From a virus, in the IMG/VR virus record IMGVR_UViG_3300050119_000052, positions 1-53,894 of that record: a stretch of 53,894 bases of DNA, one strand, 5' to 3'. The notes beneath the pieces were generated by a model, which worked only from the letters and a program-made list of their open reading frames with translations, ran no database searches and had not been told where the DNA came from. Numbering within the stretch: position 1 is the stretch's first letter; every line of letters starts with the position of its first letter. This document shows positions 5,300-53,894 of the stretch, piece by piece. A program made the translations under genes and the position numbers.

Positions 5300-5367
5300 A
5301 CACTCAGCGGAGACGCCCGTCTGCATCCTGGGTGACGAAACAAATCTGGGGCATCTCCGCTGAGTGC
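5300..5367 (-). repeat. GNCACCCA stem-loop element, type C, copy 1
   Basis: Read on the minus strand this 68-base element is a 20-base arm (GCACTCAGCGGAGATGCCCC), then AGATTTGTTTC, GTCACCCA, GGATGCAGAC and a 19-base return arm. It obeys the same rule as the arrays at 22142-23985: unpaired C, A-N9-C, core, N9-C. The arms pair over about 17 of 19 positions. A TAGACT box (5375-5380 on the complementary strand) lies 7 bases upstream of the element in its own sense, as in the other two type C copies, and could be a -10 hexamer. It fills the gap between two tail genes. Confidence 0.85.
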
Positions 5368-5416
5368 CGCCCACAGTCTAACTGACTGAGCCGCGCAACC
5401 CAAAGGGGGACTTGGA

Positions 5417-11719: not shown

Positions 11720-11720
11720 C

Positions 11721-22141: not shown

Positions 22142-22259
22142 CCCCACCACGCCAAGACGGCGACGTCACCCAGAGGTCCAGCGCGTGGTGGGGCCAAAAC
22201 TTCCAGCTTCCCCGGCAGCCAACCGGAACACGACACCCAACGGCGACTCGCTGCCGGGG
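22142..22259 (+). repeat. Stem-loop array I (two GNCACCCA elements)
   Basis: Element 1 (22143-22192) has type A arms, CCCACCACGCC and GCGTGGTGGG, and holds AAGACGGCGAC, GTCACCCA, GAGGTCCAGC. Element 2 (22210-22259) has type B arms, CCCCGGCAGCC and GCTGCCGGGG, and holds AACCGGAACAC, GACACCCA, ACGGCGACTC. Each is exactly 50 bases with a 10-11 bp perfect stem and a 30-base loop. The array is preceded by ATGACC and followed by GGGGGAACAC-ATG of the next gene. The whole stretch is also open in the frame of that gene, but low complexity and the repeat rule argue against coding. Confidence 0.9.
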
Positions 22260-22282
22260 ACCACTACTCAGCGGGGGAACAC

Positions 22283-22756: not shown

Positions 22757-22761
22757 GACCT

Positions 22762-23048
22762 CCCCGGCAGCCAGACCGCCTACGTCACCCACAAGGGCAC
22801 CGCTGCCGGGGACCCAAACCACCGCCACGCCACGCTGGTCGCGTCACCCACATCTGGTTCGCGTGGCGGTCCTATTCGACCCCGGCAGCCAAAGCCGCGC
22901 CGTCACCCATGTCGTGGGCGCTGCCGGGGTCCATATTCCCCCACCACGCCAGAGGTCGACCGTCACCCAACGCCCACACGCGTGGTGGGTTCACACGTCC
23001 CCGGCAGCCAGCCCGCAGCCGTCACCCAGACGAGGCACGCTGCCGGGG
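22762..23048 (+). repeat. Stem-loop array II (five GNCACCCA elements, B-A-B-A-B)
   Basis: Elements are 22762-22811 (B), 22821-22870 (A), 22880-22929 (B), 22940-22989 (A) and 22999-23048 (B), each exactly 50 bases, spaced by 9, 9, 10 and 9 variable bases. Variable N9 pairs are GACCGCCTA/CAAGGGCAC, CGCTGGTCG/CATCTGGTT, AAGCCGCGC/TGTCGTGGG, GAGGTCGAC/ACGCCCACA and GCCCGCAGC/GACGAGGCA. All five cores are GTCACCCA. The A stem at 22821 has compensatory changes (ACCGCCACGC with GCGTGGCGGT), which supports base pairing. The interval is otherwise empty and ends 22 bases before the IS110-like gene. Confidence 0.95.
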
Positions 23049-23070
23049 ACCTCACTCATCGGGGGACCAC

Positions 23071-23805
23071 ATGACTGACCTCTACGACCCACTCCTCGGC
23101 AACCTCGCCGCCACAGTCGACGACCTCGAGATGGTTCGGAAAGCCGCCGAGAACCGTCTACGGCAGTTGACTAGGACCGGCGTCGACAAAGACGGCACCT
23201 CACGCGGCTTCGGACTACCCGAAGACCACCTATCCGTCCAAGCGGCCACAGTCATCGTCGACGGACTCAAGCGAGTCGAACACCAAGCGATCCTGCTGTT
23301 ACAGCGCCAACTCCGCACCCACCCACTACACCCGTGGATCAAGGCCCAAAACGGGCTGGGTGAGAAAACCGTCGCCCGACTGCTCGCCGCGATCCAGGAC
23401 CCGTACTGGAACGACCGACACGACCGCCCCCGCACCGTTGGTGAGCTGTTCAAGTTCTGCGGTGTCGCCGGCCCCGGTCAGCGTAAGCGGAAGGGTGAAC
23501 GGGTCACGTGGTCGCCTGAGGCGCGGATGCGATTGCACGTGATCATCGAGCCGATCGTGAAGAATCGGCGGTCGCCCTATCGGGCGGTTTACGACCAGGC
23601 GCGGGTCAAGTACGCGGAGAAGACGCACACGGAGGTGTGTGTGCGGTGCGGCCCGGCGGGTAAGCCTGCGCTGGTTGGGTCGCCGTGGCCGCCGGCTCAT
23701 CAGCATGCGGCCGCGATGCGCCTGGTGAAGCGTGCAGTTCTGCGCGGGCTGTGGGAAGAATCCCGCCGGTTGCATGGTGCCGACGAACTGAAGGTCGCAG
23801 CATGA
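23071..23805 (+). CDS. Stand-alone IS110 Transposase_20-like protein
   Basis: The 244-residue protein starts at ATG behind GGGGGACC, right after array II. Residues 89-110 form a helix-hairpin-helix (QNGLGEKTVARLLAAIQD), followed by RTVGELFKFCGVA, RKGERVTWSPEARMRL and KNRRSPYRAVYDQARVKYA, the order of the C-terminal Transposase_20 domain of IS110 transposases. The N-terminal 88 residues are helical and lack the DEDD RuvC-like domain, and the SG motif holding the catalytic serine is not seen. A CVRC-x15-HQH set could bind zinc. It ends KVAA. There are no IS ends. It may bind the neighbouring stem-loops; that role is inferred. Confidence 0.75.
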   Translation: MTDLYDPLLGNLAATVDDLEMVRKAAENRLRQLTRTGVDKDGTSRGFGLPEDHLSVQAATVIVDGLKRVEHQAILLLQRQLRTHPLHPWIKAQNGLGEKTVARLLAAIQDPYWNDRHDRPRTVGELFKFCGVAGPGQRKRKGERVTWSPEARMRLHVIIEPIVKNRRSPYRAVYDQARVKYAEKTHTEVCVRCGPAGKPALVGSPWPPAHQHAAAMRLVKRAVLRGLWEESRRLHGADELKVAA

Positions 23806-23816
23806 CCACTCAAACT

Positions 23817-23985
23817 CCCGCCACGCCAGCCATCTGCCGACACCCAGCTCTCTCGCGCGTGGCGGGGCTCAACTACCCCGGCAGCCATGGGCCTGGCGTC
23901 ACCCAAGCGATGACCGCTGCCGGGGTCCTAAACGAATCGTCGCGCCAAGTCCCAGCCGTCACCCATCAGAGGGCCGCCCGTCGGA
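23817..23985 (+). repeat. Stem-loop array III (three GNCACCCA elements, last degenerate)
   Basis: Element 8 (23817-23827 arm to 23866, type A with CCCGCCACGCC/GCGTGGCGGG) holds AGCCATCTGCC, GACACCCA, GCTCTCTCGC. Element 9 (23876-23925, type B) holds ATGGGCCTGGC, GTCACCCA, AGCGATGACC. Element 10 (23936-23985) keeps the loop rule (AAGTCCCAGCC, GTCACCCA, TCAGAGGGCC), but its arms pair at only 6 of 10 positions. The array opens with ATGACC overlapping the IS110-like stop and ends just before the next start. A 69-codon frame spans it with ATGA overlaps at both ends. Confidence 0.85.
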
Positions 23986-34317: not shown

Positions 34318-34519
34318 TCAACCCGAAACCCCAAAGCGCGCCGAAGAGAATAAGAATGCTCAGCCGGATTTCTCGGATGTCACCCGTTGCGGCTCGGTAC
34401 TAGCAGGTCAGCAGTGTGTCCGGGAGGCCTGCCACTCAGAAAATTGCAGGTATTTAGCGCCTGTTGAATGCTGCGCCAGCGGCTCATGTGAGGTCTGCAA
34501 GCCATGGAGATATCAATGA
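34310..34519 (+). CDS. Cys-rich protein with MASQPET N-terminus
   Basis: The 69-residue product begins with a repeated gene-start block (GTGGCTAGTCAACCCGAAAC) and contains eight Cys (for example CVREACHSENC and CCASGSCEVC), indicating one or two zinc sites. Its stop overlaps the methyltransferase ATG. Confidence 0.55.
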   Translation: MASQPETPKRAEENKNAQPDFSDVTRCGSVLAGQQCVREACHSENCRYLAPVECCASGSCEVCKPWRYQ

Positions 34520-35187: not shown

Positions 35188-35273
35188 AAGACGAAGCAAT
35201 GCACGACGATACGGACTTGCGGGCGAGTGACGCTTGGCAGCATGAGCAGATCCGAGGTGGTTTGGGTGGCTAG
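35184..35273 (+). CDS. 29-residue acidic peptide
   Basis: GTG overlaps the methyltransferase stop. The frame reads VKDEAMHDDTDLRASDAWQ and ends GGLGG, with its stop inside the repeated block that starts the next gene. Confidence 0.35.
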   Translation: MKDEAMHDDTDLRASDAWQHEQIRGGLGG

Positions 35274-35655
35274 TCAACCCGAAACCGCAGGTGACGTTTT
35301 CGATCCGATGCAAAACGCCGGTCATCCGTCGTGGTTCGACATGCCCGAGATCGGCGAAGACGGCATCGCGCATCACGTCGAATACACGCCTGGCGTTGGT
35401 CATCAATGCTTGCCTGATTGCCCAGCGACTGACGGCCATGCGTTTGGGGGTGGTTTGGGCCCGCGAATCGTCGTGACGGTCACTTTGGATGGCCAGCCGA
35501 TCTTCATCGGATCACCCCGTGCCGACAGTAATGACCTATTCCGCCTCGACGACAAGGCAGGCGAGCCCTCATGGCTGACCTGCTGCATCCCTGATCTCAG
35601 TGTTCGGCTGTCGGTGCCTTCTGTCCGTGAACACCCCGAAGGAGCGCAGCAATGA
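35266..35655 (+). CDS. Early protein with MASQPET N-terminus
   Basis: The 129-residue product starts at GTG within the repeated start block. A central part has CLPDCPATDGHAFGGG and then a beta region IVVTVTLDGQPIFIG. Two Cys occur late (TCCIPDL). No family is recognised. Confidence 0.55.
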   Translation: MASQPETAGDVFDPMQNAGHPSWFDMPEIGEDGIAHHVEYTPGVGHQCLPDCPATDGHAFGGGLGPRIVVTVTLDGQPIFIGSPRADSNDLFRLDDKAGEPSWLTCCIPDLSVRLSVPSVREHPEGAQQ

Positions 35656-35825
35656 GCGCGGTGAGTGGCACCCCGGTGGCTAGTCAACCCGAAACCCCAA
35701 AGCCGGACGGTAAGCGCATCGAAGAGGACGTCCGCGATCTGCGGTTCTCGGACGAGGCGCGTAAGTACATGCCGGAGCTGACCGACAGGCAGGCTGCATT
35801 CGTGGATTGGTTGGTGCACCGATGA
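35652..35825 (+). CDS. 57-residue protein carrying the repeated block internally
   Basis: ATG overlaps the previous stop, and residues 9-16 (VASQPETP) come from the repeated start block, whose GTG could be the true start. The remainder is helical (RIEEDVRDLRFSDEARKYMP). The stop overlaps the next ATG. Confidence 0.45.
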   Translation: MSAVSGTPVASQPETPKPDGKRIEEDVRDLRFSDEARKYMPELTDRQAAFVDWLVHR

Positions 35826-42909: not shown

Positions 42910-43063
42910 CCAGACGTTCGAGGGCTTGTTGTGGGAGCAGGACAAGGAAGGCGTGACCCTTCGGGACGCGGCCCTGATCAGTGAGAAAGGCGCACAGACG
43001 CGGCTGGCGGGGGAGGTGTGGATTCCCCGCGGCAACGTGCTGTTCGCGCAGCACGACGGATAA
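42854..43063 (+). CDS. Small protein between terminase and portal
   Basis: The 69-residue protein (MTWLRRVTRQRVLIHSAADQ, then FEGLLWEQDKEGVTLRDA) resembles a small beta-barrel protein common at this position in actinophages. It overlaps the terminase 3' end by 56 bases. The function is unknown. Confidence 0.65.
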   Translation: MTWLRRVTRQRVLIHSAADQTFEGLLWEQDKEGVTLRDAALISEKGAQTRLAGEVWIPRGNVLFAQHDG

Positions 43064-43072
43064 GAGGCGGCC

Positions 43073-44314
43073 ATGCAGGTTCTGACCAGGGATCGGCGCT
43101 TCGAAGAGGTCCGTTCGGGCACCTGGAATCCGGCTCAGCAGTGGGGTTCGACTGTGCCGCCCACCAACGGGCAGGCGGGTGGCGTCGCGGCCTCGGGGAC
43201 GACGGTGTCGGAGAAGCACGCGATGCAGCTCGCGGCGGCGTGGGGGTCGGTGTCGATCATCTGCGACGCGTTGGCGACGCTACAGATCCGGCAGTACAAG
43301 CTGGTGTCGAGTAGCGACGTCCCGGTGCAGATGGACCCGTCGCAGGTCATCGCGGAGCCGTGGCCCGAGATCAATCAGCTGGATTTCATCACCCAGGGCA
43401 CCTATTCGCTTTTGCAGCGGGGGAATCTGTTCGGCAACATCACCGCACGGGACCCGAACACCCTTTACCCGACGCAGGTGCAGCTCGTCCACCCTGATCA
43501 TGCGCGGGTTCGCCGCGCCGGCCAGGGGCAGATCGAGGTGTCCTACTTCAACAAGGTCGCGAACCCCGACAATGTGACCCGGGCGATGGCGCTGTCCGTC
43601 CCTGAGGGACTGGTCGGGTTGAACCCGATCGAGTACATGCGTAACTCGTTCGGGCTGGGTTTGGCGCAGGACGGCATGAGTGGTTCGTTCTTCGCGAACT
43701 CGGCTAGGCCCGATGGTGTCCTCCAAGTCGAGGGTGATCTGGACCCGGACGAAACGAAGGCGATGCTCGCCGCGTGGAACTCCTCCCATCAGGGCATCGA
43801 GGCCGCGTACGGCGTCGGTGTGTTGACGAGCGGCGCCAAGTGGCAACCGATCACGATGAACCTCGCGGACGCCCAGTTCTTGCAGCAGATGCAGTATTCG
43901 GCGTCGGTGATTTCCGGGATGATTTACCGGGTTCCGCCGCACATGCTCGGCATCGTCGACAAGTCCACGTCGTGGGGTGCCGGCATCGAGCAGCAGGAAC
44001 AAGGGTTCATCACCAACACCATCGGGATCTGGCTGGCCCGCTGGGAAGACTTGATGACGTCGTGGCTGCCACCAAGGCAGTTCGTGATGTTCGACCTGAG
44101 CAAGCGGCTCCGTGGTGACACGTTGCAGCGCTGGTCGATGTATCAGATGGCGCGGGTTATCGGTGCGATGAACAACCTTCAGATCATCAAGGCTGAGGGT
44201 TTGGAGATTCCGACGGACCCGGCGGTGTTGGCGACGTTGGCGGATTATGCGGCGCCGTTGAATTCGGCGCCGATGAAGCCGACGAATTCCGCAGTCGACG
44301 GAGACAAAGCGTAA
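43073..44314 (+). CDS. Portal protein (HK97 type)
   Basis: The 413-residue protein has the portal pattern: AMQLAAAWGSVSIICDALAT, a DFITQGTYSLLQRGNLFG segment, the crown-proximal IYRVPPHMLG near residue 284 and GIEQQEQGFITNTI. Position between terminase and protease is canonical. It forms the dodecameric DNA channel. Confidence 0.95.
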   Translation: MQVLTRDRRFEEVRSGTWNPAQQWGSTVPPTNGQAGGVAASGTTVSEKHAMQLAAAWGSVSIICDALATLQIRQYKLVSSSDVPVQMDPSQVIAEPWPEINQLDFITQGTYSLLQRGNLFGNITARDPNTLYPTQVQLVHPDHARVRRAGQGQIEVSYFNKVANPDNVTRAMALSVPEGLVGLNPIEYMRNSFGLGLAQDGMSGSFFANSARPDGVLQVEGDLDPDETKAMLAAWNSSHQGIEAAYGVGVLTSGAKWQPITMNLADAQFLQQMQYSASVISGMIYRVPPHMLGIVDKSTSWGAGIEQQEQGFITNTIGIWLARWEDLMTSWLPPRQFVMFDLSKRLRGDTLQRWSMYQMARVIGAMNNLQIIKAEGLEIPTDPAVLATLADYAAPLNSAPMKPTNSAVDGDKA

Positions 44315-44321
44315 TAGCAAA

Positions 44322-44389
44322 GCACCCAGCGGAGAAGCCCGAAAGGGAAATGGGTGACGTTTTGGAGATGGGGCTTCCCCGCTGAGTGC
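44322..44389 (-). repeat. GNCACCCA stem-loop element, type C, copy 2
   Basis: Minus-strand order is GCACTCAGCGGGGAAGCCCC, ATCTCCAAAAC, GTCACCCA, TTTCCCTTTC and the return arm. The arms pair at 17 of 19 positions. A TAGACT box lies 7 bases upstream in its sense. The two N9 blocks (TCTCCAAAA, TTTCCCTTT) are AT-richer than those in the arrays. It occupies the whole portal-protease gap. Confidence 0.85.
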
Positions 44390-44419
44390 AGCCACAAGTC
44401 TACCTGAAAGGAGGTCGCC

Positions 44420-45394
44420 GTGACAGACGACGCAAGCGACGCAGCCGAGGAGAAGGCTCTGCCGAAGTCGGTCGAGTGGCGCAAGACGCGCGCCATGGAA
44501 CTGCGAGGCGCCGAGCGTCGCACCCATCTGGAGCATGTCGAGTTCCGCGACAACCCAGACGGGTCCCTGCATCTGTCCGGTTACGCATCGGTTACGAATA
44601 CTCCATACGATATGGGATGGTATTCCGAGTCGATCTCCCGCGGCGCGTTCGCGAAAACCCTCGCCGAAAACCCCGACGTGCAACTCCTCGTGAACCACGC
44701 CGGGCTGCCGTTGGCGCGCACCAAGTCGGGCACTTTGCAACTGTCTGAGGACAACACGGGGCTGCGGGTAGACGCTGATCTCGACCCGGAAGACCCCGAC
44801 GTGCAGTCGCTGTCGCGGAAGATGAAGCGCGGCGATATCGACCAGATGAGCTTCGCGTTCCGTGCGACCAGGCAGTCCTGGGACGAGGACTACACCGACC
44901 GGCAGATCACCGAATGCGATATTCACCGCGGCGATGTCAGCGTTGTGAATCAGGGTGCGAACCCGAGCACGTCCGTGTCGGTGCGCACTGAAGACGCACT
45001 GGTGGCGTTGCGGCACATCGGGCACCTCGGATTCCTCGAGGCGATGCTCGACATTCGGCGCTTCTCCGGCACTCCGCTGGAGCAGCGGGCCGGGATGACG
45101 CTGTCCGCGGCCACCACCGAGGTACTGACCCAGGTGCTGGCCCTCATTGCGACGGCGGACGAAGCAGTCGACGAGGCTCAGCCGCTCCTGGCCGATCTGA
45201 TGGGCGTCCCCAACCCCGACGAGCCCGAAGAGGACGCGAGCGATGCGACCGTCGATGACACCAGCGACGAAGGTGACGACGGCGACCAGGGCGGCGACGA
45301 GGGCGAACAGGACTCGGCCCGCAGCGTGTCGCTGGCGTTGGAAGCCCGCCGCCGCCTAGAAGCGCTCCGCTACCCGAAGAAGGACGCAGCATGA
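44420..45394 (+). CDS. Prohead protease
   Basis: The 324-residue protein starts at GTG behind AAAGGAGGT, an ideal ribosome site. SGYASVTNTPYDMG, VQLLVNHAG (His) and GDIDQMSFAF (Ser) are the HK97 U35 protease landmarks in residues 50-155. A long acidic C-terminus (DEPEEDASDATVDD and further) could be a scaffold segment. It processes the capsid precursors. Confidence 0.9.
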   Translation: MTDDASDAAEEKALPKSVEWRKTRAMELRGAERRTHLEHVEFRDNPDGSLHLSGYASVTNTPYDMGWYSESISRGAFAKTLAENPDVQLLVNHAGLPLARTKSGTLQLSEDNTGLRVDADLDPEDPDVQSLSRKMKRGDIDQMSFAFRATRQSWDEDYTDRQITECDIHRGDVSVVNQGANPSTSVSVRTEDALVALRHIGHLGFLEAMLDIRRFSGTPLEQRAGMTLSAATTEVLTQVLALIATADEAVDEAQPLLADLMGVPNPDEPEEDASDATVDDTSDEGDDGDQGGDEGEQDSARSVSLALEARRRLEALRYPKKDAA

Positions 45395-46539
45395 CCAGCG
45401 TCGAAGTCGTGTCCGAGCCGCTCACCTACGAGCGGCACGGCCCCCACTCGTACTTCCAGGACATGTATCGGGCGCAGGAAGATCCTCGCGCCTTTGACCG
45501 CTTGTCCCGGCACAGCGCGGAGATGCGGGTCGTTGGTGAGAAGCGGGAGGCACGTGCCCGTCAGGCGCTCGACGCTGGTGACCTGGAGTACCGGGTCAGC
45601 CCCGACACAACTCAGGGCACGGGCGGGTACCTCACCGTGCCACTCTGGCTCGATCAGTTGTTCGCGACGGCGCCGCGCCCGGGCCGGATCTTGGCAGCTC
45701 TGATCGAGGCTGCGTTCGACCTGCCTGACGGTGTGTCGTCGATCAACGTCCCGATTCTGACCGCTGGCACGGCCGTGCAGCCTGTGCTCGACGACTCCGC
45801 GGCGCCGAGCGCTGATGTCACCGACGCGGCGGGTTCCTCGACCGTCGTCACCCTCACTGGCCAGTCTGATTGGCCGATCCAGGCACTGGAGCAGTCCCCG
45901 GCCGGTGCCGCCCTGGATTGGGTGATCTTCACCGACATGGCTGCCGCCTACGACGCCCAACTCGAAACGCAACTCCTCACCGGACTGGGTGCCGCTGCGA
46001 AGCAACTAGTTGGTGTCCTCAACGTCGCGGGCACGGTCGGCGTCACCTACACCAACGCGTCGCCGACCGGCGCGTTGCTGTACCCCTATCTCGGCCAAGC
46101 GACGGCTCGGGTCGGTAACAACCGCAATCTGCCGCCGGAGGCGTTTCTGATGCGGACGGCTCGGTGGGCGTGGCTCGCTACGTCTGAGGACACGCAGGGC
46201 CTCCCCTTTTTCTTGCCCACGTTTTTTCTCGGCGACGACGAGGACACCCCGGATGCGCTCGGTGGTGTCGTCGGGATCCCCGTGTTCTGTGATGACGCGT
46301 TGCCCGCGAATCTCGGTGCGGGCGGCAATCAGGATGTCATTGTCGCGTTGCGACCGTCGGACATGGTCATTTTCGAAGGCACCCCGCAGACCACCGTGAT
46401 GCGTGAGGTGCTGTCCGGGTCGCTCGGTGTCCGCTTCCAGATGCACAACAGAGTTGCTGCGATCACGAATCGCTACCCGTCCGGTATCTCGCCCATTACC
46501 GGGACGGGCCTCGTCGTGCAGTCAGGCTTCAGCTCCTGA
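45391..46539 (+). CDS. HK97-fold capsid protein 1
   Basis: The 382-residue product has RVSPDTTQGTGGYLTVPLWL as the N-arm to E-loop region and REVLSGSLGVRFQMHNRVAA near the end, the Phage_capsid family pattern. It lacks a long scaffolding N-terminus, having only about 55 residues before the likely cleavage region. It is clearly paralogous to the next gene, so it may be a minor or vertex capsomer form. Confidence 0.85.
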   Translation: MTSVEVVSEPLTYERHGPHSYFQDMYRAQEDPRAFDRLSRHSAEMRVVGEKREARARQALDAGDLEYRVSPDTTQGTGGYLTVPLWLDQLFATAPRPGRILAALIEAAFDLPDGVSSINVPILTAGTAVQPVLDDSAAPSADVTDAAGSSTVVTLTGQSDWPIQALEQSPAGAALDWVIFTDMAAAYDAQLETQLLTGLGAAAKQLVGVLNVAGTVGVTYTNASPTGALLYPYLGQATARVGNNRNLPPEAFLMRTARWAWLATSEDTQGLPFFLPTFFLGDDEDTPDALGGVVGIPVFCDDALPANLGAGGNQDVIVALRPSDMVIFEGTPQTTVMREVLSGSLGVRFQMHNRVAAITNRYPSGISPITGTGLVVQSGFSS

Positions 46540-46548
46540 CGCAATGGA

Positions 46549-46616
46549 GCACCCAGCGGAGAAGCCCGCACACCGACTGGGTGCCGCTCATGACCTGGGG
46601 TCTCTCCGCTGAGTGC
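46549..46616 (-). repeat. GNCACCCA stem-loop element, type C, copy 3
   Basis: Minus-strand order is GCACTCAGCGGAGAGACCCC, AGGTCATGAGC, GGCACCCA, GTCGGTGTGC and the return arm. The core differs by one base (GG instead of GT). A TAGACT box lies 8 bases upstream in its sense. It sits between the two capsid genes. The 46617-46782 stretch adds a CCGGGC/GCCCGG hairpin and the ribosome site of the second capsid gene. Confidence 0.85.
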
Positions 46617-46782
46617 CGTCCCCGAGTCTAACCACTAGTCGTTTCACCCCACGCCGGGCCTGTGCCCGGTGCGCGCCGCTGCACCCACGGGTCGCAGCAC
46701 CCGCACCGGACGTGGCGCACCACCTGGGAAATCCAGCAAACCCCCAGAGCGCACGAATGCGCCCGACGCTAGGAGAACAGCA

Positions 46783-48441
46783 ATGGCAGACAAGAAGGAG
46801 CCGACGCTCCTCGAACTTTTGAACGAGCGCCGCCAGAAGGCGTTCGAAGCATGGAGCGGTGAGATCGGCAGGCGGGAGACCGCTGATACCGATTTCGAGG
46901 CTCGCCGCAACGCTACCGACGAGGCTGTGCACCCGACCGACGACGAGGTGACGGCGCACCGTGACGCGCAGGCCGCGTTCCGGGTCCGCTCGGACGAGGC
47001 TGAGGTGGAGTTGCGCGAGTTCGACAAGCGCATCGACGAACAGGGTGAGATCGAGACCCGCCGCGCCGCCGCCGCCGCAGCCAGCAAGGGCAACGCCGAG
47101 GTCGAGTCGGAGCCGCTGACCTATCGCCGCGACAACGCCCACGTACGGTCCTACTACGCCGACCTCGCCGTGGCGATGGTCGACGGGGTGACCTTGTCAC
47201 GCAACAACAAGACCGAGGCCCTGACCCGCCTGAACCGGCACGCCGCCGAGATGGACGTCGAGATCCCGAAGCGGATCAAGGCGGCCGAGGCCCGCGCCGT
47301 CGCCCGGTTCGCGGAGGCCGAGTCCCGGTCCGTGTCGCGCCGCAACGGCGTCACCATGGAAGATGTTCGCCCGCTCGCCTACGACCCGTTCCAGCGGTCA
47401 CGGCGTGGCGCTGAACTGGAGGAGCGGGTCACCCCGAACCGGCAGGACGGCTACGGCGGGTACCTGATCCCACCGTTGTGGCTGCCCGAGGACTTCATCC
47501 CCGGCCTGCGTGCTCAGGGTGTCGCCCGGGACCTGTGCCGGCAAATGGACTTGCCCGCCGGCACCGACAGCATCAATATCCCGAAGTTGGCGAACCTGAC
47601 CGCGGTTGGGTATCAGCAGGCGGACAACTCCGGTGTCGTGACGCAGGACTGGACGGACACGTTCGTTCAGGCCAATGTGAAGACCGCCGCGGGGCAGTCC
47701 GACGTCGCGTTGCAGCTGTTGGAGCAGTCCCCGAACGGCATCACCGACGAGGTGATCACCACTGACCTGCTGGCCGCGTACAACCAGTTCGTTGATCAGC
47801 AGGTGATCTCCGGTGACGGTGTGTCGACGGGGCAGCTCAACGGCGGCCACATCCTCGGGATCTACCCGTCGAGCAACTGGGCGAACACGAACGGCGTGAC
47901 CTACACCGACAGCTCCCCGGCTGGTGTGCACTTCGGTGCTGGCGCGATGGGCCCGTTGGCGTCGAAGATCGCCCGGACTCGTTTCGACGTCGAGGACTTC
48001 GCGATCGTGATGCACGGTCGCCGCTGGTTCTGGTACTCCACGGCGAATGACGTCAACGGTCGCCCGCTCGGTGAGACCCTCGGAGCTGGTCGGTTCCAGG
48101 CGGCGGTCGCTGAAGAGGAACTGGCCGCCTACGGCCGGGTCGGCACCTTGCCGTACCTCGCTGACGCGCCCGTGTACATCGACAACAACATCCCGATCAC
48201 CGACACCGCTGGTGGCGGCTCGGCACAGGACATCGCGATCGGTGCCCTGTGGTCGGACCTGTGGCTGTTCATGGGCGACCTGCGGACGAACGTGTTCCGT
48301 GAGGTTCTCTCCGGCAGCCTCGGTGTCAGGTTCCAGGTCTACAACTACTTCGCGTTCCTCGCGCGGTACGGCCAGTCGATCGCTGTCGCGACCGGCTCCG
48401 GTTTCGCTCAGCCGTCCACCGGCTACGGCGACTACTTCTAA
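46783..48441 (+). CDS. HK97-fold major capsid protein 2 with scaffold domain
   Basis: The 552-residue product starts at ATG behind TAGGAGAAC. Residues 1-115 are a charged coiled-coil delta/scaffold domain (LLELLNERRQKAFEAWSGEI), residues 115-215 repeat the spacer seen in capsid 1 (RLNRHAAEM), and the HK97 fold follows from TPNRQDGYGGYLIPPLWLPE to FREVLSGSLGVRFQVYNYFA. It is the likely major capsid subunit, matured by the upstream protease. Confidence 0.9.
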   Translation: MADKKEPTLLELLNERRQKAFEAWSGEIGRRETADTDFEARRNATDEAVHPTDDEVTAHRDAQAAFRVRSDEAEVELREFDKRIDEQGEIETRRAAAAAASKGNAEVESEPLTYRRDNAHVRSYYADLAVAMVDGVTLSRNNKTEALTRLNRHAAEMDVEIPKRIKAAEARAVARFAEAESRSVSRRNGVTMEDVRPLAYDPFQRSRRGAELEERVTPNRQDGYGGYLIPPLWLPEDFIPGLRAQGVARDLCRQMDLPAGTDSINIPKLANLTAVGYQQADNSGVVTQDWTDTFVQANVKTAAGQSDVALQLLEQSPNGITDEVITTDLLAAYNQFVDQQVISGDGVSTGQLNGGHILGIYPSSNWANTNGVTYTDSSPAGVHFGAGAMGPLASKIARTRFDVEDFAIVMHGRRWFWYSTANDVNGRPLGETLGAGRFQAAVAEEELAAYGRVGTLPYLADAPVYIDNNIPITDTAGGGSAQDIAIGALWSDLWLFMGDLRTNVFREVLSGSLGVRFQVYNYFAFLARYGQSIAVATGSGFAQPSTGYGDYF

Positions 48442-48470
48442 ACCGCCCTCAACCAGATAGGAAAACGATT

Positions 48471-49088
48471 ATGCCTGGCGATCTTGTTGGCGGTTCATAC
48501 CCGCTCACGTTCGACCTCAAGAAGCTCCTGGGCGCGGTCAACGCGACCCAGGGCAACATCGCGGGTCGCAGCAACCTGCAATGGCCCATCGGGTCTTTGC
48601 AGGACGCTGCGGCTTCGCTGGTAACTGCGGACATCACCCTCGTCGCGGTCCCCGTGGAGTACGGCGACGAGTACAACTACGTGGACGTGCTGGTTGGTGC
48701 GACCCCTGCGTCGACACCCACCCACTCGTACGCGGCCCTGTACTCCGGCGTCCTCACCACGGCGAAGCTGGTCGGCACCCAGTCGACGGACAGCACCACG
48801 ACCGCTATCGGGGCATCGACGACGCTGACCTACACCCTCGGCGCCGGCTACATCGCGAACCCGGTCGATTCCCCGTACGGGTACCTGTACGTCGCGTTGG
48901 CGCAGACCGGCACCACCGTGTCGTCGCTGATCTCGGGGACGTTCCCGACCGCGGCGCAGAAGGCGTGGTACACGAACATGCCGAAGCTCGCGGCGACGAT
49001 CTCCGCAGCGGGCGGGACCGCACCAGCAACGATCACACTCGCGTCGACGACAGCTATCGCGTCGCCTCCGGTGGTCGTTCTCCGCTAG
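48471..49088 (+). CDS. Capsid decoration or head-fibre protein
   Basis: The 205-residue protein is Ser/Thr/Ala-rich and beta-structured (GASTTLTYTLGAGYIANP; SGVLTTAKLVGTQSTDSTTT). Its position directly after the capsid gene and lack of catalytic residues suggest a capsid decoration protein. It is also a possible substrate of the glycosyltransferase downstream. Confidence 0.6.
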   Translation: MPGDLVGGSYPLTFDLKKLLGAVNATQGNIAGRSNLQWPIGSLQDAAASLVTADITLVAVPVEYGDEYNYVDVLVGATPASTPTHSYAALYSGVLTTAKLVGTQSTDSTTTAIGASTTLTYTLGAGYIANPVDSPYGYLYVALAQTGTTVSSLISGTFPTAAQKAWYTNMPKLAATISAAGGTAPATITLASTTAIASPPVVVLR

Positions 49089-49252
49089 TGGCCATACCGG
49101 GGCAGGAGACGCCTGAGCAGAACATGCCGAAGCCGTCGCCTGCCCCGGTCCCACGGAAAGAACACGCCGTGCCGCCCGAGAAGGAGACACGTGAGGATCG
49201 TCATCCCCCATGCGGGCCGTCGGCACACCCAAGTGGACGCAGCAGCTCCTGA
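49088..49252 (+). CDS. 54-residue Pro-rich protein
   Basis: GTG overlaps the decoration-gene stop. The product is Pro/Glu-rich (QETPEQNMPKPSPAPVPRKE) and overlaps the glycosyltransferase start by 62 bases. It may be a linker or not a protein gene. Confidence 0.4.
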   Translation: MAIPGQETPEQNMPKPSPAPVPRKEHAVPPEKETREDRHPPCGPSAHPSGRSSS

Positions 49253-49760
49253 CGGTGCCGAATGGCATGACGTCGGCGGCGACGACCTCGCCTACTGGCG
49301 GCTGATGTGCGACCTATGGGAGCAATGCCGCGATGACGGTGACGACCTTTGGATCATCGAGCACGACGTCATCTGTCGGCCCGACGTTCTCTCCGCTTTC
49401 GACGACTGCCCCGCGCCCTGGTGCGCCAACGGCTACTCCAATATCTGCCACCGCGAGTGCCTCGACGCTTGGGCGAACCTCCTCGGCTGCACCCGCTTCC
49501 GCAACGAACTGATCCGCGCCGTTCCCGACGCCGTATCGGCCATCACCCGACCCGAGCATCTGGACTGGCACAACCTCTGCGACGGCATCGGCGGCAACCA
49601 TCCGATGATGCCCGGTTACACCCCGAATGAGAACTGGGGTCTACGTGCCGCTGGATTCACACACCACTGGCACTGGCCGGCAGTTGACCACCTAGACCGC
49701 AATGTCGATCCCGATTTCTGGTACGGGCCTGGTGGCCGGTACGCGAAGGAGCCAGCATGA
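49191..49760 (+). CDS. Glycosyltransferase-like protein
   Basis: The 189-residue product starts at GTG (MRIVIPHAGRRHTQVD) behind GAAGGAGAC. DLWIIEHDVICRPDVLSAFD carries an acidic EHD motif in a GT-A-like position, followed by WCANGYS and a C-terminal HHWHWPAVDH. Such small glycosyltransferases between capsid and connector genes of actinophages modify virion proteins with sugar. The donor is unknown. Confidence 0.65.
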   Translation: MRIVIPHAGRRHTQVDAAAPDGAEWHDVGGDDLAYWRLMCDLWEQCRDDGDDLWIIEHDVICRPDVLSAFDDCPAPWCANGYSNICHRECLDAWANLLGCTRFRNELIRAVPDAVSAITRPEHLDWHNLCDGIGGNHPMMPGYTPNENWGLRAAGFTHHWHWPAVDHLDRNVDPDFWYGPGGRYAKEPA

Positions 49761-50038
49761 GCACTCTGTCCGACATGCACGCCAAGGCGACCGCGATGCT
49801 GGAGATGATCGGTGAGGACTTGGACGCGTTCGGTGGTGATGTTGAGGGGCATCTGCGGGTTGTGATCGCCCATCTGGAGCATGTCATCGGTGATGCCAAG
49901 CCCACCCCAGTCGAGCCCGTGGCCGAGCATGAGCTCGTCGCAGAAGTGCAATGGCGCGACCCGGCTGGCAGGACGGTTACCGCCGATGAGCCTGCTGCGG
50001 CTCCCGCCGCCGTGAAGCGCACCAGCGGCAAGAGCTGA
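49757..50038 (+). CDS. 93-residue head-region protein
   Basis: The N-terminal half is helical (SDMHAKATAMLEMIGEDLDA), and the C-terminal half is Ala/Pro/Lys-rich. It overlaps the glycosyltransferase stop. The role is unknown; similar small proteins lie between capsid and connector genes. Confidence 0.55.
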   Translation: MSTLSDMHAKATAMLEMIGEDLDAFGGDVEGHLRVVIAHLEHVIGDAKPTPVEPVAEHELVAEVQWRDPAGRTVTADEPAAAPAAVKRTSGKS

Positions 50039-50042
50039 CCCC

Positions 50043-50402
50043 ATGTCGGGGACTATCACCGTCACCGGCATGTCCGCTGGTCTCACGTCCGGATACAAGG
50101 TCATCGGCCCGATCACGATCACCGGAAGCAACCCGGTCGGGGAGATCATCGACGCGACCCTCGCGTCGGGTGACAACACGTTCACGGTGCCCACGGGGGC
50201 GACTGCGGTCCTTCTTGCGCTCGGCTCGGCGTCGGCAGTGACGGTGAAGGTCCGCACCAACCTCAACGCGGGCGATGCTGGACTGCCGGTTGCCCCGTTC
50301 GGCGGGGTCGGGTTCATGGTGTTCAACCTCGTCGCTGACGTGACCAGCGTGATCCTCAACGCGTCCGGGTCGCTACCCAACGCCGAGCTGTCCTTCATCT
50401 AA
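50043..50402 (+). CDS. Small beta-barrel virion protein
   Basis: The 119-residue product is all beta (TITVTGMSAGLTSGYKVIGP; VLLALGSASAVTVKVRTN), fitting a capsid decoration or Ig-like virion protein. It starts four bases after the preceding stop. Confidence 0.6.
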   Translation: MSGTITVTGMSAGLTSGYKVIGPITITGSNPVGEIIDATLASGDNTFTVPTGATAVLLALGSASAVTVKVRTNLNAGDAGLPVAPFGGVGFMVFNLVADVTSVILNASGSLPNAELSFI

Positions 50403-50413
50403 GGGGGTGCGTT

Positions 50414-51373
50414 GTGCCGGCTGTCGCTGACCTCACCATCCGCCAAGGCGACACCACTCCCGCATTCACTGCGTGGGTCACCGACCAGAACGGGAACGGG
50501 CTGGACCTGACCGGTGCGACGTGCACGTTCGTGATGCGCGAGATGTATTCCTCGGCTCCGGTCGTGAATGCGGCGATGACCCTCAAGCCCCCTTTCTTGG
50601 GGCTGGTCACCTACAACTGGGCGAGCACCGACACCGCGGCAGCGGGCCTGTACATGGCGGAAATCCACGTCACCCTGCCGGGCGGTGGGACGTTCACATA
50701 CCCGAACGACGGCTACCTGACGGTCGCGGTCGAGGAGAACCTCCTCACCTCGAACCGCACCCTTGTGTCCCTCGGCGACGCGAAGGACGTCCTCCTCGTC
50801 CCGGCGTCGGATCACAGTCATGACGCGAAGATTCTTCAGTTCATCCGCGCCGTCCAGGTCGTCGTTGAGTCGCGGGTCGGCGCGGTGGTGCCGCGGGTGT
50901 TCGACGAGTGGTACGACGGCGGCCATCCGGCGGTCAGGCTGCGGTATCGGCCGTCGACCGCGTTGGGGACTACGCCGCTGCTGATCCTGCTCGCATGCAG
51001 CGAGTACATCGGGCCGATCGAGTGGCCGCTGGCGGTGATCAGCTCACCGGACCAGGGGCAGATGTATTCGTGCATGTTGGATGTTCCGACGGGCACTGTG
51101 GTGCGCCGTACCGCTGGGGGCGCGGTGCAGGCGTTCGCGGGTGGCCCGCAGGCCGTGCACGTGGTTTATCAGGCGGGGCAGTCGCAGACGCCCGCGAACG
51201 TGTACGAGGGCACCTTGGAGTTGCTGCGTGAGCATTACCAGCAGACGCAGCAGGTCGGCGCCCCGGGCCCGGGCGGTAATCAGGTGGATGAGCACGAAGC
51301 CATCGGGGAGCTCGTCTCGGCGAAGGTCATGCAGTGGATCAGCCCGATGCGACGTCACCCGTCTGTCGCATGA
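50414..51373 (+). CDS. Head-tail adaptor with N-terminal Ig/BppU-like domain
   Basis: The 319-residue protein joins two parts. Residues 1-115 (IRQGDTTPAFTAWVTDQNGN, TCTFVMRE) are a beta-sandwich of the type found in baseplate and fibre proteins. From LVSLGDAKDVLLVPASDHSH (about 117) to the end it is a helical connector of the gp6/gp15 adaptor type. A tail-type domain on a connector is unusual. It overlaps the next ATG by four bases. Confidence 0.65.
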   Translation: MPAVADLTIRQGDTTPAFTAWVTDQNGNGLDLTGATCTFVMREMYSSAPVVNAAMTLKPPFLGLVTYNWASTDTAAAGLYMAEIHVTLPGGGTFTYPNDGYLTVAVEENLLTSNRTLVSLGDAKDVLLVPASDHSHDAKILQFIRAVQVVVESRVGAVVPRVFDEWYDGGHPAVRLRYRPSTALGTTPLLILLACSEYIGPIEWPLAVISSPDQGQMYSCMLDVPTGTVVRRTAGGAVQAFAGGPQAVHVVYQAGQSQTPANVYEGTLELLREHYQQTQQVGAPGPGGNQVDEHEAIGELVSAKVMQWISPMRRHPSVA

Positions 51374-51882
51374 GTATCACGTCCACCATCCCCGGTGCGG
51401 CCCAGACGCTCCTCGGCTACATGCAGGCCGTCGCCGGGGCCAACCCGGACCTGGATGTGCAGGTCTACACCGGTTGGCCCGTCACCAGCGCCTGGTCACC
51501 GAACTTCATGATGCTCGGCGACTACAAGGAAGGGCTGGTCGTCAGCCCGGATTCGTACAGGTGGGCGGCGGTCCCGGGCGCTGCGAAGCTCCGTTTCGAG
51601 GAGTACGCGCTGATGGGCTGCATCCGGGCGTGGTCGGGCAGCCCGGATGGTACCGCGCCGTTCGACCGCCTCGGTGAGGCGTACACGCTCCTCAATGGCT
51701 TGCACGATCAGATCGTCTCCGACATTGGGGGCGACTCCTACGTGGTCGATTCTTTGACGTCGTCCGGGTCGTGGGGTGACCTCGGCGTGACGATGGATGC
51801 CTTCGGTCAGATCGATGGTAAGGGCTGGGGTGTTGTCCTCGGCTTCGAGCTGCACGTGATAAACGCCCAGCTCATCGGCTGA
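51370..51882 (+). CDS. Tail terminator / head-tail joining protein
   Basis: The 170-residue protein lies between adaptor and tail tube, with TIPGAAQTLLGYMQAV and a central YALMGCIRAWSG, consistent with the HK97 gp10/lambda gpU-like terminator group. The assignment rests mainly on position and size. Confidence 0.55.
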   Translation: MSITSTIPGAAQTLLGYMQAVAGANPDLDVQVYTGWPVTSAWSPNFMMLGDYKEGLVVSPDSYRWAAVPGAAKLRFEEYALMGCIRAWSGSPDGTAPFDRLGEAYTLLNGLHDQIVSDIGGDSYVVDSLTSSGSWGDLGVTMDAFGQIDGKGWGVVLGFELHVINAQLIG

Positions 51883-51890
51883 GGAAAGGC

Positions 51891-51918
51891 CGAAGGCCCC
51901 ACTGTAGCGGGGCCTTCG
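51891..51918 (+). terminator. Hairpin terminator before the tail tube operon
   Basis: CGAAGGCCCC and GGGGCCTTCG form a perfect 10-bp stem with an 8-base loop. The following ACTTGCC is not T-rich, so termination may be partial. It separates head from tail transcription. Confidence 0.65.
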
Positions 51919-52005
51919 ACTTGCCGCCCTGTGCGCAGGGTTGCTGCGTTGAGTACGGCCACGCGGCTCACAGCCCGAACCGCCAGGCAATTGCCTACCT
52001 ATCGT

Positions 52006-52049
52006 AGCGCCCCTTCCACCGTTTCCGACACCCCGTGAAAGGGGCTGCT
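52006..52049 (+). promoter_or_regulatory. Hairpin covering the ribosome site of the 52054 gene
   Basis: AGCGCCCCTTCCAC pairs with GTGAAAGGGGCTGCT (12 pairs, one mismatch, one bulge) around a 15-base loop. The AAGGGG ribosome site lies in the 3' arm, five to ten bases before GTG. This could restrict translation. Upstream, 51926-52005 holds only a GGCAATTGCC palindrome. Confidence 0.5.
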
Positions 52050-52053
52050 TGTC

Positions 52054-52287
52054 GTGCCCACAATCCGCAACCGCACCAGCCAGCTGCTGCATCTGCACCG
52101 CGTCGGCCGGGAGATCGAACCCGAGCAGTCGATCGATGTGTCCGACGACGAAGCGCAAATGCTCGCCGGCCACCCACTGCTTACGGGTGTCCCGCCGTAC
52201 CCGCAACCCGAGCCGCCGGTCATCACAGCGGTCGCCGCGAAGCCCAGCAAACCCATCACCACGCAGGAAGACGGTGACTCGCAGTGA
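52054..52287 (+). CDS. Small protein before the tail tube gene
   Basis: The 77-residue protein (GTG start) has IRNRTSQLLHLHRVGREIEP and VSDDEAQMLAGHPLL, a pattern of small virion-associated beta proteins, with a Pro-rich end. The stop overlaps the tail tube GTG. The function is unknown. Confidence 0.55.
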   Translation: MPTIRNRTSQLLHLHRVGREIEPEQSIDVSDDEAQMLAGHPLLTGVPPYPQPEPPVITAVAAKPSKPITTQEDGDSQ

Positions 52288-53318
52288 GTTCCCCAGGTTC
52301 AGGTCTCGGCTCATCGTTCGGCACAGGCGTCGAAACCGCTGGGTCGTACGGCACGTTGGCCACGATCGGTAAGTGGCTGGCCGTCGACTCATGCGAGATC
52401 AAACAGGCCCCCGTCTACTACAAGGGCGAGGGTTTGCACGGCGGCACGCTGGTCCGTGAGGACGCGGAAGTTGTCCGCACGAACCTCGATTCCGCCGGGT
52501 CGATCAAGGCCCCGTTCTATTACAACGGGCTCGGCCGGCTCATCGGGTCGCTGATGGGCTCACTGGCGGTCGCACCCTCAGCGGACACGTCACCCGCGTA
52601 CACGGCCACGCACGCGTTCGCGAACTCATGGCATCAGTCGCTGTCCATTCAGCAGTGCATCCCGGACGTGGCGCAGGCGGCCCACTACTGGAACCACCTC
52701 GGCGTGAAAGTCACCGACGCCCAGTTCGAATGCTCCACTGGTAATCCGCTGCTGGCGACGTTCAACGTCGACTGCCAGGACACGTTCGAAGCGTCGTCCG
52801 GCACGTCAGCGACAGAGCCGGGCGGGTCGCCGTTCTTCGCGTTCCACCAGATGGCGGTGAAGGTCGGCGCCTTCGGTTCCGAGGTGAAGGTCGACGGTGT
52901 TTCGAAGTGGACCGGGGCGATCAAGCGGGCTCAGGCGAACAAGCGTTTCAACGCCGGCAACGTCACGACCAACCCCAACGACTCGTACGCCATCAAGGAT
53001 GAGCCGGTCGACAACGGGTTCGCTGACATCACCGGCACCCTCGACACCGAATATTTGAACGACACCCTGTTCGAGAACTACTACCAGACGGACACGCCGT
53101 TCTCGCTGATCGTGGCGTTCACGTCCGCGACGCTGGCGGCTGTCGCATTCCCGTATTCGGTGACGTTCGCGTTCCCCCGCTGCCGGTTCCTCACGGGGGA
53201 GAACCCGACCATCGCCGGCCCGGACATCGTGAAGCCCGTCATGGCTTACGAAGTGATGCTCGACGGCACCCACCCGGCCGCGACCATCACCGTCGTCAAC
53301 ACCGACGTGACGCTCTGA
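52284..53318 (+). CDS. Major tail tube protein
   Basis: The 344-residue protein starts GSGLGSSFGTG with ETAGSYGTLATIGKWLAVDS, typical of actinophage phage-tail-tube proteins, and an ITGTLDTEYLNDTLFENYYQ segment near residue 245. Its place before the frameshifting chaperones is canonical. It forms the hexameric rings of the tail tube. Confidence 0.9.
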   Translation: MSSPGSGLGSSFGTGVETAGSYGTLATIGKWLAVDSCEIKQAPVYYKGEGLHGGTLVREDAEVVRTNLDSAGSIKAPFYYNGLGRLIGSLMGSLAVAPSADTSPAYTATHAFANSWHQSLSIQQCIPDVAQAAHYWNHLGVKVTDAQFECSTGNPLLATFNVDCQDTFEASSGTSATEPGGSPFFAFHQMAVKVGAFGSEVKVDGVSKWTGAIKRAQANKRFNAGNVTTNPNDSYAIKDEPVDNGFADITGTLDTEYLNDTLFENYYQTDTPFSLIVAFTSATLAAVAFPYSVTFAFPRCRFLTGENPTIAGPDIVKPVMAYEVMLDGTHPAATITVVNTDVTL

Positions 53319-53650
53319 TGGCTGACCTGATAAAGCTCGACTGGGACGGCAAGCATTACGAGCTGGAGTTGCAGTCCATCACGGGCCGCGAATTCAAGTC
53401 CATCAAAACGCACCTCGGAATGAAGTCCGGCCCCTTCATCCAGTCGTTCATGTCATTGGACAACCAGGACGCGGACGCTGTCGTGGCGCTCCTCTGGTTG
53501 TGCAAGAAGCGGGCTGGTGAACAGGTCGACTTCGAGCAGCTCTCCGACTTGCCGGTGTTCTCCATCATGGAGGGCATCAGCACCCCCGACCTGGATGTCG
53601 AGGACGTGGTGGACCCAAAAGGCGAGGCGAGTACGCCGACCGTTGGCTAG
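53318..53650 (+). CDS. Tail assembly chaperone (G-type)
   Basis: The 110-residue protein starts at ATG in overlap with the tail tube stop. YELELQSITGREFKSIKTHL and SLDNQDADAVVALLWLCKKR are typical of tail assembly chaperones. It carries the slippery heptamer near its end and is the unshifted product of the G/GT pair. Confidence 0.85.
   Translation: MADLIKLDWDGKHYELELQSITGREFKSIKTHLGMKSGPFIQSFMSLDNQDADAVVALLWLCKKRAGEQVDFEQLSDLPVFSIMEGISTPDLDVEDVVDPKGEASTPTVG
53614..53620 (+). promoter_or_regulatory. Programmed -1 frameshift site CCCAAAA
   Basis: C-CCA-AAA is in the zero frame of the chaperone gene and obeys the XXXYYYZ rule. A -1 slip gives CCC-AAA-AGG and opens a frame to 53883. Position and phase are exactly those of the conserved tail chaperone frameshift. 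Confidence 0.9.
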
Positions 53651-53883
53651 CGACGCAGCGGCAACGGTTCGACACGCGGGCCGCTGACGAGCCGTGGGAC
53701 ATCGCCAACAAGTACATGGGCTGGTTCGCGATCGAATGCCATTACACCCCGGATCAGGTTTTCGACATGCCGTGGCCGCAGCTGGTCGCGTTGAGTCTCC
53801 TCGCCGATGACATGGCTGACGCCCGCAACCGCCAGAACACCAATCAGGCGATGAGCAGCCGACCACCACGCCGCATGACCTAA
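53614..53883 (+). CDS. Tail assembly chaperone GT extension (frameshift product)
   Basis: The -1 frame adds about 89 residues to the G protein, beginning KRRGEYADRWLATQRQ and containing DIANKYMGWFAIECHY and MPWPQLVALSLLADDMADAR, ending before TAA at 53883. There is no start codon of its own near the slip. The long product bridges tape measure and tube subunits during assembly. Confidence 0.85.
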   Translation, partial: PKRRGEYADRWLATQRQRFDTRAADEPWDIANKYMGWFAIECHYTPDQVFDMPWPQLVALSLLADDMADARNRQNTNQAMSSRPPRRMT

Positions 53884-53894
53884 AAGGGGGGTTC

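What the first reader, a model, noticed from the sequence alone, without database searches (positions are those of the whole stretch)
44322..44389. Type C element in the portal-protease gap
Same minus-strand stem as at 5300 and 46549 with new N9 blocks TCTCCAAAA and TTTCCCTTT. The flanking 17 bases including TAGACT are conserved among the three copies while N9 blocks are not, suggesting each is an individually expressed unit with its own -10-like box.
Basis: partly seen in the sequence, partly recalled or inferred. Interest (0 to 1): 0.75.

Follow-up and report, generated by a model that had tools for sequence, protein, structure and literature searches.

The report
Scattered guide-RNA genes in a phage
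The hairpin is most likely a stand-alone gene for a tiny two-part guide RNA that works with a phage protein of the recently described TIGR-Tas family, and it matters because such guides were described only in clusters next to their protein gene, not scattered through a viral genome.

Summary
The element at 44322-44389 (minus strand) is real and far beyond chance. Its anatomy is stem / CCA / 9-nt spacer A / CGTCACCCA / 9-nt spacer B / CG / stem. This is the box C / box D, dual-spacer layout of a TIGR stem-loop guide RNA unit (Faure et al. 2025). Nine more units with the same core but two other stems lie at 22142-23926, on both sides of a 244-aa gene (23071-23805). That gene is a TasA: NCBIfam TIGR_Tas 195 bits (cut-off 100), and its predicted fold matches TasH and TasR over the Nop domain, with no nuclease domain. 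The three 'type C' elements (5301-5366, 44322-44389, 46548-46617) are therefore solitary tigRNA units, about 18-23 kb from tasA (treating the record as linear), in gaps of the late operon and antisense to it. TAGACT occurs three times in the window, each time just upstream of one of them, which fits a private -10 box. In a relative, a whole TasA-plus-array module sits in the same portal-protease gap. Solitary units recur in other TasA phages, some starting 0-3 nt after a tRNA or tmRNA. No transcript data were available, and every search for targets was negative. Verdict: new variant (dispersed, solo-gene units) of a known kind (TIGR-TasA).

The parts
44322..44389 (-). type C solitary tigRNA unit, portal-protease gap (the finding)
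   Evidence: covariance model 31.9 bits; it is one of the 85 training sequences
44372..44389 (-). 5' stem arm (GCACTCAGCGGGGAAGCC)
   Evidence: fold -38.2 kcal/mol, z -4.7, 0 of 200 shuffles as low
44369..44371 (-). box C (CCA) of the edge
   Evidence: CCA invariant by the detector's rule; box names from PMC12045711
44360..44368 (-). spacer A, TCTCCAAAA
44351..44359 (-). loop repeat CGTCACCCA (box D 'CG' + linker + box C 'CCA')
44342..44350 (-). spacer B, TTTCCCTTT
44340..44341 (-). box D (CG) of the edge
44322..44339 (-). 3' stem arm (GGCTTCTCCGCTGGGTGC)
44397..44402 (-). TAGACT, putative -10 box; 7 nt from its end to the stem
   Evidence: only 3 occurrences in the window; transcription start inferred
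5301..5366 (-). type C solitary unit 1, spacers GATTTGTTT / GGATGCAGA, after a minor tail gene
5375..5380 (-). TAGACT upstream of unit 1
46548..46617 (-). type C solitary unit 3, spacers GGTCATGAG / GTCGGTGTG, between two capsid-like genes
46625..46630 (-). TAGACT upstream of unit 3
22142..22260 (+). two array units (22142-22193, 22209-22260) between the Cro-like gene and the next gene
22761..23050 (+). five array units directly upstream of tasA, two stem types alternating
23816..23926 (+). two array units directly downstream of tasA (23816-23867, 23875-23926)
23944..23977 (+). probable degenerate unit: both boxes and spacers, poor stem
   Evidence: 18.2 bits, positions 9-42 of the model
23071..23805 (+). 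tasA: solo Nop-domain TIGR-associated protein, 244 aa (start codon inferred)
   Evidence: NCBIfam NF052498 195.4 bits vs cut-off 100; PDB TasR 9mty and TasH 21kl
43073..44314 (+). portal gene, left neighbour
   Evidence: PHROGs phrog_12, E 1.3e-60
44420..45394 (+). head maturation protease gene, right neighbour
   Evidence: PHROGs phrog_7053, E 5.7e-49

Best explanation
The element is a single stem-loop guide RNA gene (tigRNA unit) of a TIGR-TasA system encoded by this temperate phage. It is transcribed on the minus strand, probably from the TAGACT box so that the RNA starts at or near the foot of the stem. The hairpin presents two 9-nt spacers, each between a box C (CCA) and a box D (CG), to a dimer of the phage's TasA. 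The loaded RNP would pair spacer A with one strand and spacer B with the other strand of one roughly 18-bp DNA site, and bind it without cutting, since TasA has no nuclease domain. Shown here: the anatomy, the TasA gene, the shared core with the array next to tasA, the three-fold TAGACT, and similar solitary units in other TasA phages. Inferred: transcription, processing, RNP formation, DNA binding. The target and the benefit to the phage are unknown. My best guess is a block on transcription or replication of a rival element or of a host locus, with the solitary units giving guides whose timing is separate from the early array.
For: Same CCA-N9-CG-N4-CCA-N9-CG core in 12 units of the window. 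The TasA gene lies amid the plus-strand array: NCBIfam NF052498 1.2e-57, PDB profile hit to TasR 3.4e-27 and TasH 6e-16, AlphaFold model pLDDT 89.7 matching TasH and TasR with Z 17-19 and IS621-type recombinases at 13. Faure et al. describe stem-loop arrays with two 8-12 nt spacers between box C and box D next to TasA (sections read). In 58 TasA loci the detector found 293 units (4 in reversed sequence), 287 within 2.5 kb of tasA and 286 of these on its strand (L095 is the same contig as L021, and L039/L062 hold the same units). Without asking for a stem, the box pattern near tasA on its strand has at least 7 of 8 flanking pairs in 213 of 242 cases, elsewhere in 6 of 36, and on the opposite strand near tasA in 1 of 7. 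In 11 related mycobacteriophages tasA is on average 97.6% identical, and two of three homologous units keep 95-100% identical stems (the third 77-81%), while differing spacers are only 18-41% alike, as expected of guides. Solitary units recur: L056, L075, L082 and 25 model hits across the record of L086. A complete TasA module with 4 units lies on the minus strand in the same portal-protease gap of relative L021.
Against: No RNA data. No recognisable -35. The type C units score lower with the covariance model (29-32 bits) than the array units (38-52 bits), and their stem and core were found nowhere else (0 of 8 portal relatives), so they could be relics. No target was found. In 1.49 Mb of phage DNA, 283 units gave 0 exact, 9 one-mismatch and 127 two-mismatch matches to the expected A+rc(B) site, the same as 12 partner shuffles (0, 5.5, 129). 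Exact matches in viral contigs (5, 9 and 0 loci) all lie in contigs of 30-47% GC, against 64% in the window, and look like chance. blastn of 6 sites in phages found nothing (no positive control). 3 of 10 Parafrankia prophage units searched in that host genome gave no match at 2 or fewer mismatches.
Confidence: 0.85

Rival explanations
1. Relic: the type C units are leftovers of a former TIGR module, or units copied out of an array and no longer expressed, kept in the gap as neutral passengers.
For: A whole TasA module occupies this same gap in relative L021 and an HNH-looking gene sits there in L023, so the gap takes insertions; type C units have lower model scores and no orthologues were found.
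Against: Three copies keep near-perfect 17-19 bp stems, intact boxes and 9-nt spacers while spacers and most flanks differ; TAGACT is kept in all three. A decaying element would be expected to lose its stem, as the unit at 23944 seems to have done.
Confidence: 0.15
2. A terminator or RNA-processing hairpin of the late operon, read on the plus strand, with no guide role.
For: Strong hairpin in an intergenic gap just after a stop codon; folds on the plus strand too (-38.0 kcal/mol, z -4.3).
Against: No run of T after either arm and no terminator-like site in the scan. It does not explain the conserved CCA/CG core shared with array units or the fixed 9-nt blocks.
Confidence: 0.06
3. A DNA-level hairpin or paired protein-binding site (MITE-like or recombination site) rather than an RNA.
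For: Inverted repeats of 18 bp, three dispersed copies.
Against: The internal core is strand-specific: near tasA units lie on the tasA strand in 286 of 287 cases. Homologous units swap spacers and keep stems. Units abut tRNA and tmRNA 3' ends on the same strand.
Confidence: 0.04

Closest known systems
TIGR-TasA stem-loop arrays (Faure et al. 2025, PMC12045711; Peromyscus gut locus)
   Same: Hairpin units with two short spacers between box C and box D; solo-Nop TasA; box C = CCA; variable palindromic stems
   Different: Box D reads CG in most units here instead of UG; three units are solitary, 18-23 kb from tasA and antisense to the late operon, each with its own TAGACT; described arrays lie up- or downstream of the tas gene
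TIGR dual-repeat arrays with TasR / TasH
   Same: Two 9-nt spacers, loop repeat of 9 nt ending in CCA, Nop fold
   Different: No repeated edge sequence; long stems instead; no nuclease domain in the protein
IS110 (IS621) bridge RNA and recombinase
   Same: Nop-like RNA-binding fold (Z 13); split guide
   Different: No DEDD catalytic domain; many one-hairpin units rather than one two-loop RNA
Box C/D snoRNA genes, including plant dicistronic tRNA-snoRNA genes (seen only as references 66-67 of PMC12045711)
   Same: Box C/D, dual guides, scattered solo genes; tRNA-linked units in relatives
   Different: Guides of 9 nt; no fibrillarin or L7 in the design; DNA rather than RNA targets in the studied TIGR systems

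Membership tests
TIGR-Tas (stem-loop array type, TasA) | A Tas protein with a Nop domain in the same genome | tested here: met
   NCBIfam NF052498 195.4 bits vs 100; TasR/TasH by sequence and fold
TIGR-Tas (stem-loop array type, TasA) | TasA subtype: no HNH or RuvC domain | tested here: met
   244 aa; the match starts at residue 65-67 of TasH and 110 of TasR, after their nuclease parts; no Pfam hit at E 1 for the window protein
TIGR-Tas (stem-loop array type, TasA) | Guide unit: palindromic stem enclosing two 8-12 nt spacers, each between box C and box D | tested here: met
   box D is CG rather than UG, a variation the paper allows ('could diverge')
TIGR-Tas (stem-loop array type, TasA) | Units clustered as an array beside the tas gene | tested here: not met
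   Not met by the three type C units (18-23 kb away); met by the nine units at 22142-23926 of the same genome. This feature describes the known loci; the type C units qualify by anatomy and partner protein, so I file them as a variant, not as a typical member
TIGR-Tas (stem-loop array type, TasA) | Unit is transcribed, processed and bound by Tas | not testable with these tools
   needs RNA-seq or pull-down
TIGR-Tas (stem-loop array type, TasA) | Spacers specify a DNA site, A on one strand and B on the other | tested here: inconclusive
   No target found above controls
IS110 bridge-RNA transposon | Transposase with DEDD catalytic domain | tested here: not met
   Only the Nop-like part is present; for the window protein no IS110 model in NCBIfam or Pfam at E 1 or better
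Intrinsic terminator | GC-rich hairpin followed by a T run | tested here: not met
   and the sequence
Known Rfam family | Covariance-model match at the gathering score | tested here: not met
   two sub-threshold chance-level matches (E up to 1) in the whole window; one overlaps part of unit 3, none overlaps the unit at 44322-44389

The most novel reading that the evidence does not exclude
TIGR guide RNAs are not only array elements. Actinophages scatter them as stand-alone genes with the organisation of snoRNA genes: some with a private -10 box in antisense to the late operon (this window), some released as the 3' trailer of tRNAs or tmRNA, some embedded in frame inside tasA itself. The solitary units would form an independently timed guide set, and tRNA-end processing would explain how tigRNAs are cut by a conserved host RNase.
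Probability: 0.55. Interest if true: 0.82.

Novelty: new variant of a known kind. Interest (0 to 1): 0.7.

Why it matters
TIGR-Tas biology is open: the natural targets, the way spacers are acquired and the processing enzyme were all unknown in the 2025 paper. Dispersed, separately expressed units show that a guide need not sit in an array, which changes how such systems must be searched for. Units joined to tRNAs point at tRNA-end RNases as candidate processing enzymes. The finding also places the system in cultured phages of Mycobacterium smegmatis (relatives of the TasA are annotated 'transposase' or hypothetical), where tasA is 97.6% identical on average but spacers differ completely, so targets and spacer turnover can be tested in a laboratory strain.

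Tried and rejected
Rfam: only chance-level matches. Terminator and sigma-70 scans: none. Near DNA relatives of 43000-53894 among phages: none. TasA as a single protein in viral contigs: none; with alignment A2, 53 viral and 5 genome loci.

Targets. The site geometry A followed by reverse complement of B, gap 0-2, follows from the 8-nt 3' overhangs and the cut position in the paper (the two sections word the cut position differently, and only 'cut 5' to the base pairing with spacer base 5' gives 8-nt 3' overhangs). Window and first relatives, 43 units (I dropped three detector hits there as likely chance: L010 16730, L012 28427, L015 19760). All 283 distinct units with other geometries and shuffled partners (likely-chance hits not dropped). 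Viral contigs for the three type C sites (GC check). blastn for two type C sites and four mycobacteriophage sites. Three of ten Parafrankia prophage units in that host genome. All negative or at control level. These do not exclude targets outside the searched sets, with more mismatches, or another geometry.

Covariation. Alignment A3 (85 of the 93 units chosen; eight left out by hand for brevity) gives 99.5% paired cells, but the units had been selected for a stem, so I rely on the test, which did not ask for one. In the covariance model I set two inner single pairs one column off (10-40 and 22-27 instead of 10-41 and 23-28); the nine outer pairs are right.

Promoter. TANNNT 3-15 nt upstream of solitary units not linked to tRNAs: 8 of 22 (3 of 3 in the window, 5 of 19 elsewhere) against 3.2% of random positions. 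Supportive but weak, since intergenic DNA is richer in A+T.

Literature. Searches. PMC12045711: sections 4-10, 24 and 49 read, plus find. PMC12385481: abstract start in the listing and one find. No mention of solitary or tRNA-linked tigRNA units was found there; supplements were not seen.

Full report
OBSERVATION. On the minus strand, 44389 to 44322 reads stem (18 nt), CCA, TCTCCAAAA, CGTCACCCA, TTTCCCTTT, CG, stem (18 nt). Copies with the same stem family and other 9-nt blocks lie at 5301-5366 and 46548-46617, also on the minus strand. The single strand folds to -38.2 kcal/mol, z -4.7. In 60 dinucleotide-preserving shuffles of the window no such unit with a stem score of 12 or more appeared, against three observed. 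The neighbours are a portal and a head maturation protease gene.

SAME CORE ELSEWHERE IN THE WINDOW. A search for the inner core found nine plus-strand elements at 22142-23926 with the same CCA-N9-CG-N4-CCA-N9-CG layout but two other stems, alternating in the main run, plus one with a poor stem at 23944. They lie directly up- and downstream of an ORF whose likely start is 23071 (stop 23805), beside the repressor, Cro-like and integrase genes.

THE PROTEIN. The 244-aa product matches NCBIfam NF052498 'TIGR-Tas system RNA-guided endonuclease' with 195.4 bits (cut-off 100), as do all 9 members of alignment A1. A profile of A1 finds the solved TasR (9mty, 3.4e-27) and TasH (21kl, 6.1e-16) and nothing else at E 0.1. 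An AlphaFold model (pLDDT 89.7) matches TasH and TasR at Z 17-19 and IS621-type recombinases at Z 13. The nuclease parts of TasH and TasR are not covered, so it is a TasA. PHROGs calls the family 'transposase'. tblastn finds it in 86 phage records, 76 of them of Mycobacterium phages, mostly annotated as transposase or hypothetical protein among the 60 listed.

WHAT THE ELEMENT IS. Faure et al. (PMC12045711; [quoted passage not shown] The element has this layout with CG as box D. A detector for the layout found 293 units in 58 TasA loci (4 in the reversed sequences), 287 within 2.5 kb of tasA, 286 of these on its strand (one contig and one prophage occur twice). A test that did not ask for a stem gave at least 7 of 8 flanking pairs in 213 of 242 box patterns near tasA on its strand, in 1 of 7 on the opposite strand, and in 6 of 36 elsewhere. 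A covariance model built from 85 units recovers all twelve window units (eleven of them in the training set); the type C units score 29-32 bits, the array units 38-52.

SPACERS BEHAVE LIKE GUIDES. In 11 mycobacteriophage loci tasA is on average 97.6% identical. The stem arms of homologous units are 95-100% identical in two sets and 77-81% in the third, but spacers that differ are only 18-41% alike. Within the window no two units share a spacer pair.

WHY THE TYPE C UNITS ARE SPECIAL. They stand alone, 18 to 23 kb from tasA (linear distance), antisense to the late operon, each filling most of a gap of 105-129 bases. TAGACT occurs three times in the window, each time upstream of one of them on the minus strand, 8-9 nt before the conserved CACTCAG. 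That spacing would put the start of transcription at the foot of the stem (inference). A relative (L021, portal 61% identical) has a complete minus-strand TasA gene (34% identical) and four units in the same portal-protease gap. Another relative (L023) has there a gene that by eye looks like an HNH endonuclease (not tested). The gap is thus a place where selfish or accessory modules land.

SOLITARY UNITS ELSEWHERE. Six units lie more than 2.5 kb from tasA (one of them, L053, probably chance). The record of L086 has 25 model hits at E 0.1 or better spread over 118,920 bases. Twelve distinct units in three phages (L056, L082, and L097, which is part of the L086 record) begin 0-3 nt after the 3' end of a tRNA or tmRNA on the same strand. 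In the same count five units lie just upstream of a tRNA 5' end on the same strand, and none on the opposite strand (two of the twelve have short stems). L082 has one more by covariance model, 1 nt after tRNA-Met. Solitary units not linked to tRNAs have TANNNT 3-15 nt upstream in 8 of 22 cases against 3.2% at random positions.

MECHANISM, BY STATUS. Shown by sequence: unit anatomy, TasA, shared core, TAGACT, recurrence of solitary units. From published work on TIGR (the paper above): dual spacers pair with opposite strands of one site; stem-loop units are processed to single RNAs; TasA lacks a nuclease. Inferred: minus-strand transcription from TAGACT, loading into TasA, DNA binding without cutting, and a role in blocking a rival or host locus. 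Targets were not found by any of the searches tried.

NOVELTY. The system is a known kind. What I did not find described in PMC12045711 (passages for 'tRNA', 'dispersed', 'solitary', 'scattered') or in the searches is the scattering of single units away from tasA, their link to tRNA and tmRNA genes, and their presence in frame inside tasA (24 of 59 loci counted, 23 with an open frame, three of the 24 being duplicates). The paper itself contrasts tigRNAs 'clustered in highly regular arrays' with sparsely distributed snoRNAs. Supplementary files of the paper were not available.

Noticed in passing
L056 4998, 6073, 8392, 8523; L082 12189 (and 10859 by model); L097 (G030:4500-14500), seven units: tigRNA units start 0-3 nt after tRNA or tmRNA 3' ends on the same strand (12 distinct units in 3 phages), suggesting release by tRNA-end processing.
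   Followed up: partly
L013 33250-33366; L039, L065, L077, L087, L094 and others (24 of 59 tasA loci, three of them duplicates): One to three tigRNA units embedded in frame inside the tasA coding region at one site, mostly between 'ELWAYCGYHV' and 'RGQRANWS', a loop of low confidence in the window model; frame open in 23 of 24. The guide array would also be translated.
   Followed up: partly
L058-L071 upstream of tasA: In 11 closely related mycobacteriophage loci (tasA mean 97.6% identical) stems are largely kept and spacers fully replaced: spacer turnover without any known adaptation gene.
   Followed up: partly
record of L086 (G030, 118,920 bases): 25 covariance-model hits scattered over the whole phage genome on both strands, some among a dense cluster of 37 tRNA/tmRNA genes in 10 kb.
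   Followed up: partly
L021 8931-10039, L023 about 11240-11980: The portal-protease gap is an insertion place: TasA plus array in one relative, an HNH-looking gene in another.
   Followed up: partly
45391-46539 and 46669-48441: Two tandem genes that both match the major head protein family phrog_2263; same order in L021. The third type C unit lies between them.
   Followed up: no
34310-34337, 35266-35293, 35676-35703, 36270: Repeated stretch GTGGCTAGTCAACCCGAAACC..., at 34310 exactly at the start of an ORF; two copies identical over 28 nt.
   Followed up: no
283 distinct units: The first base of both spacers is A or T in 69% (A) and 61% (B) of 9-nt spacers although the phages are rich in G+C.
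   Followed up: no
L058-L071, between the first and second listed unit: A further variable block flanked by GGACCGG/CCGGTCC arms whose loop repeat seems to hold a small hairpin; read by eye from the alignment.
   Followed up: no
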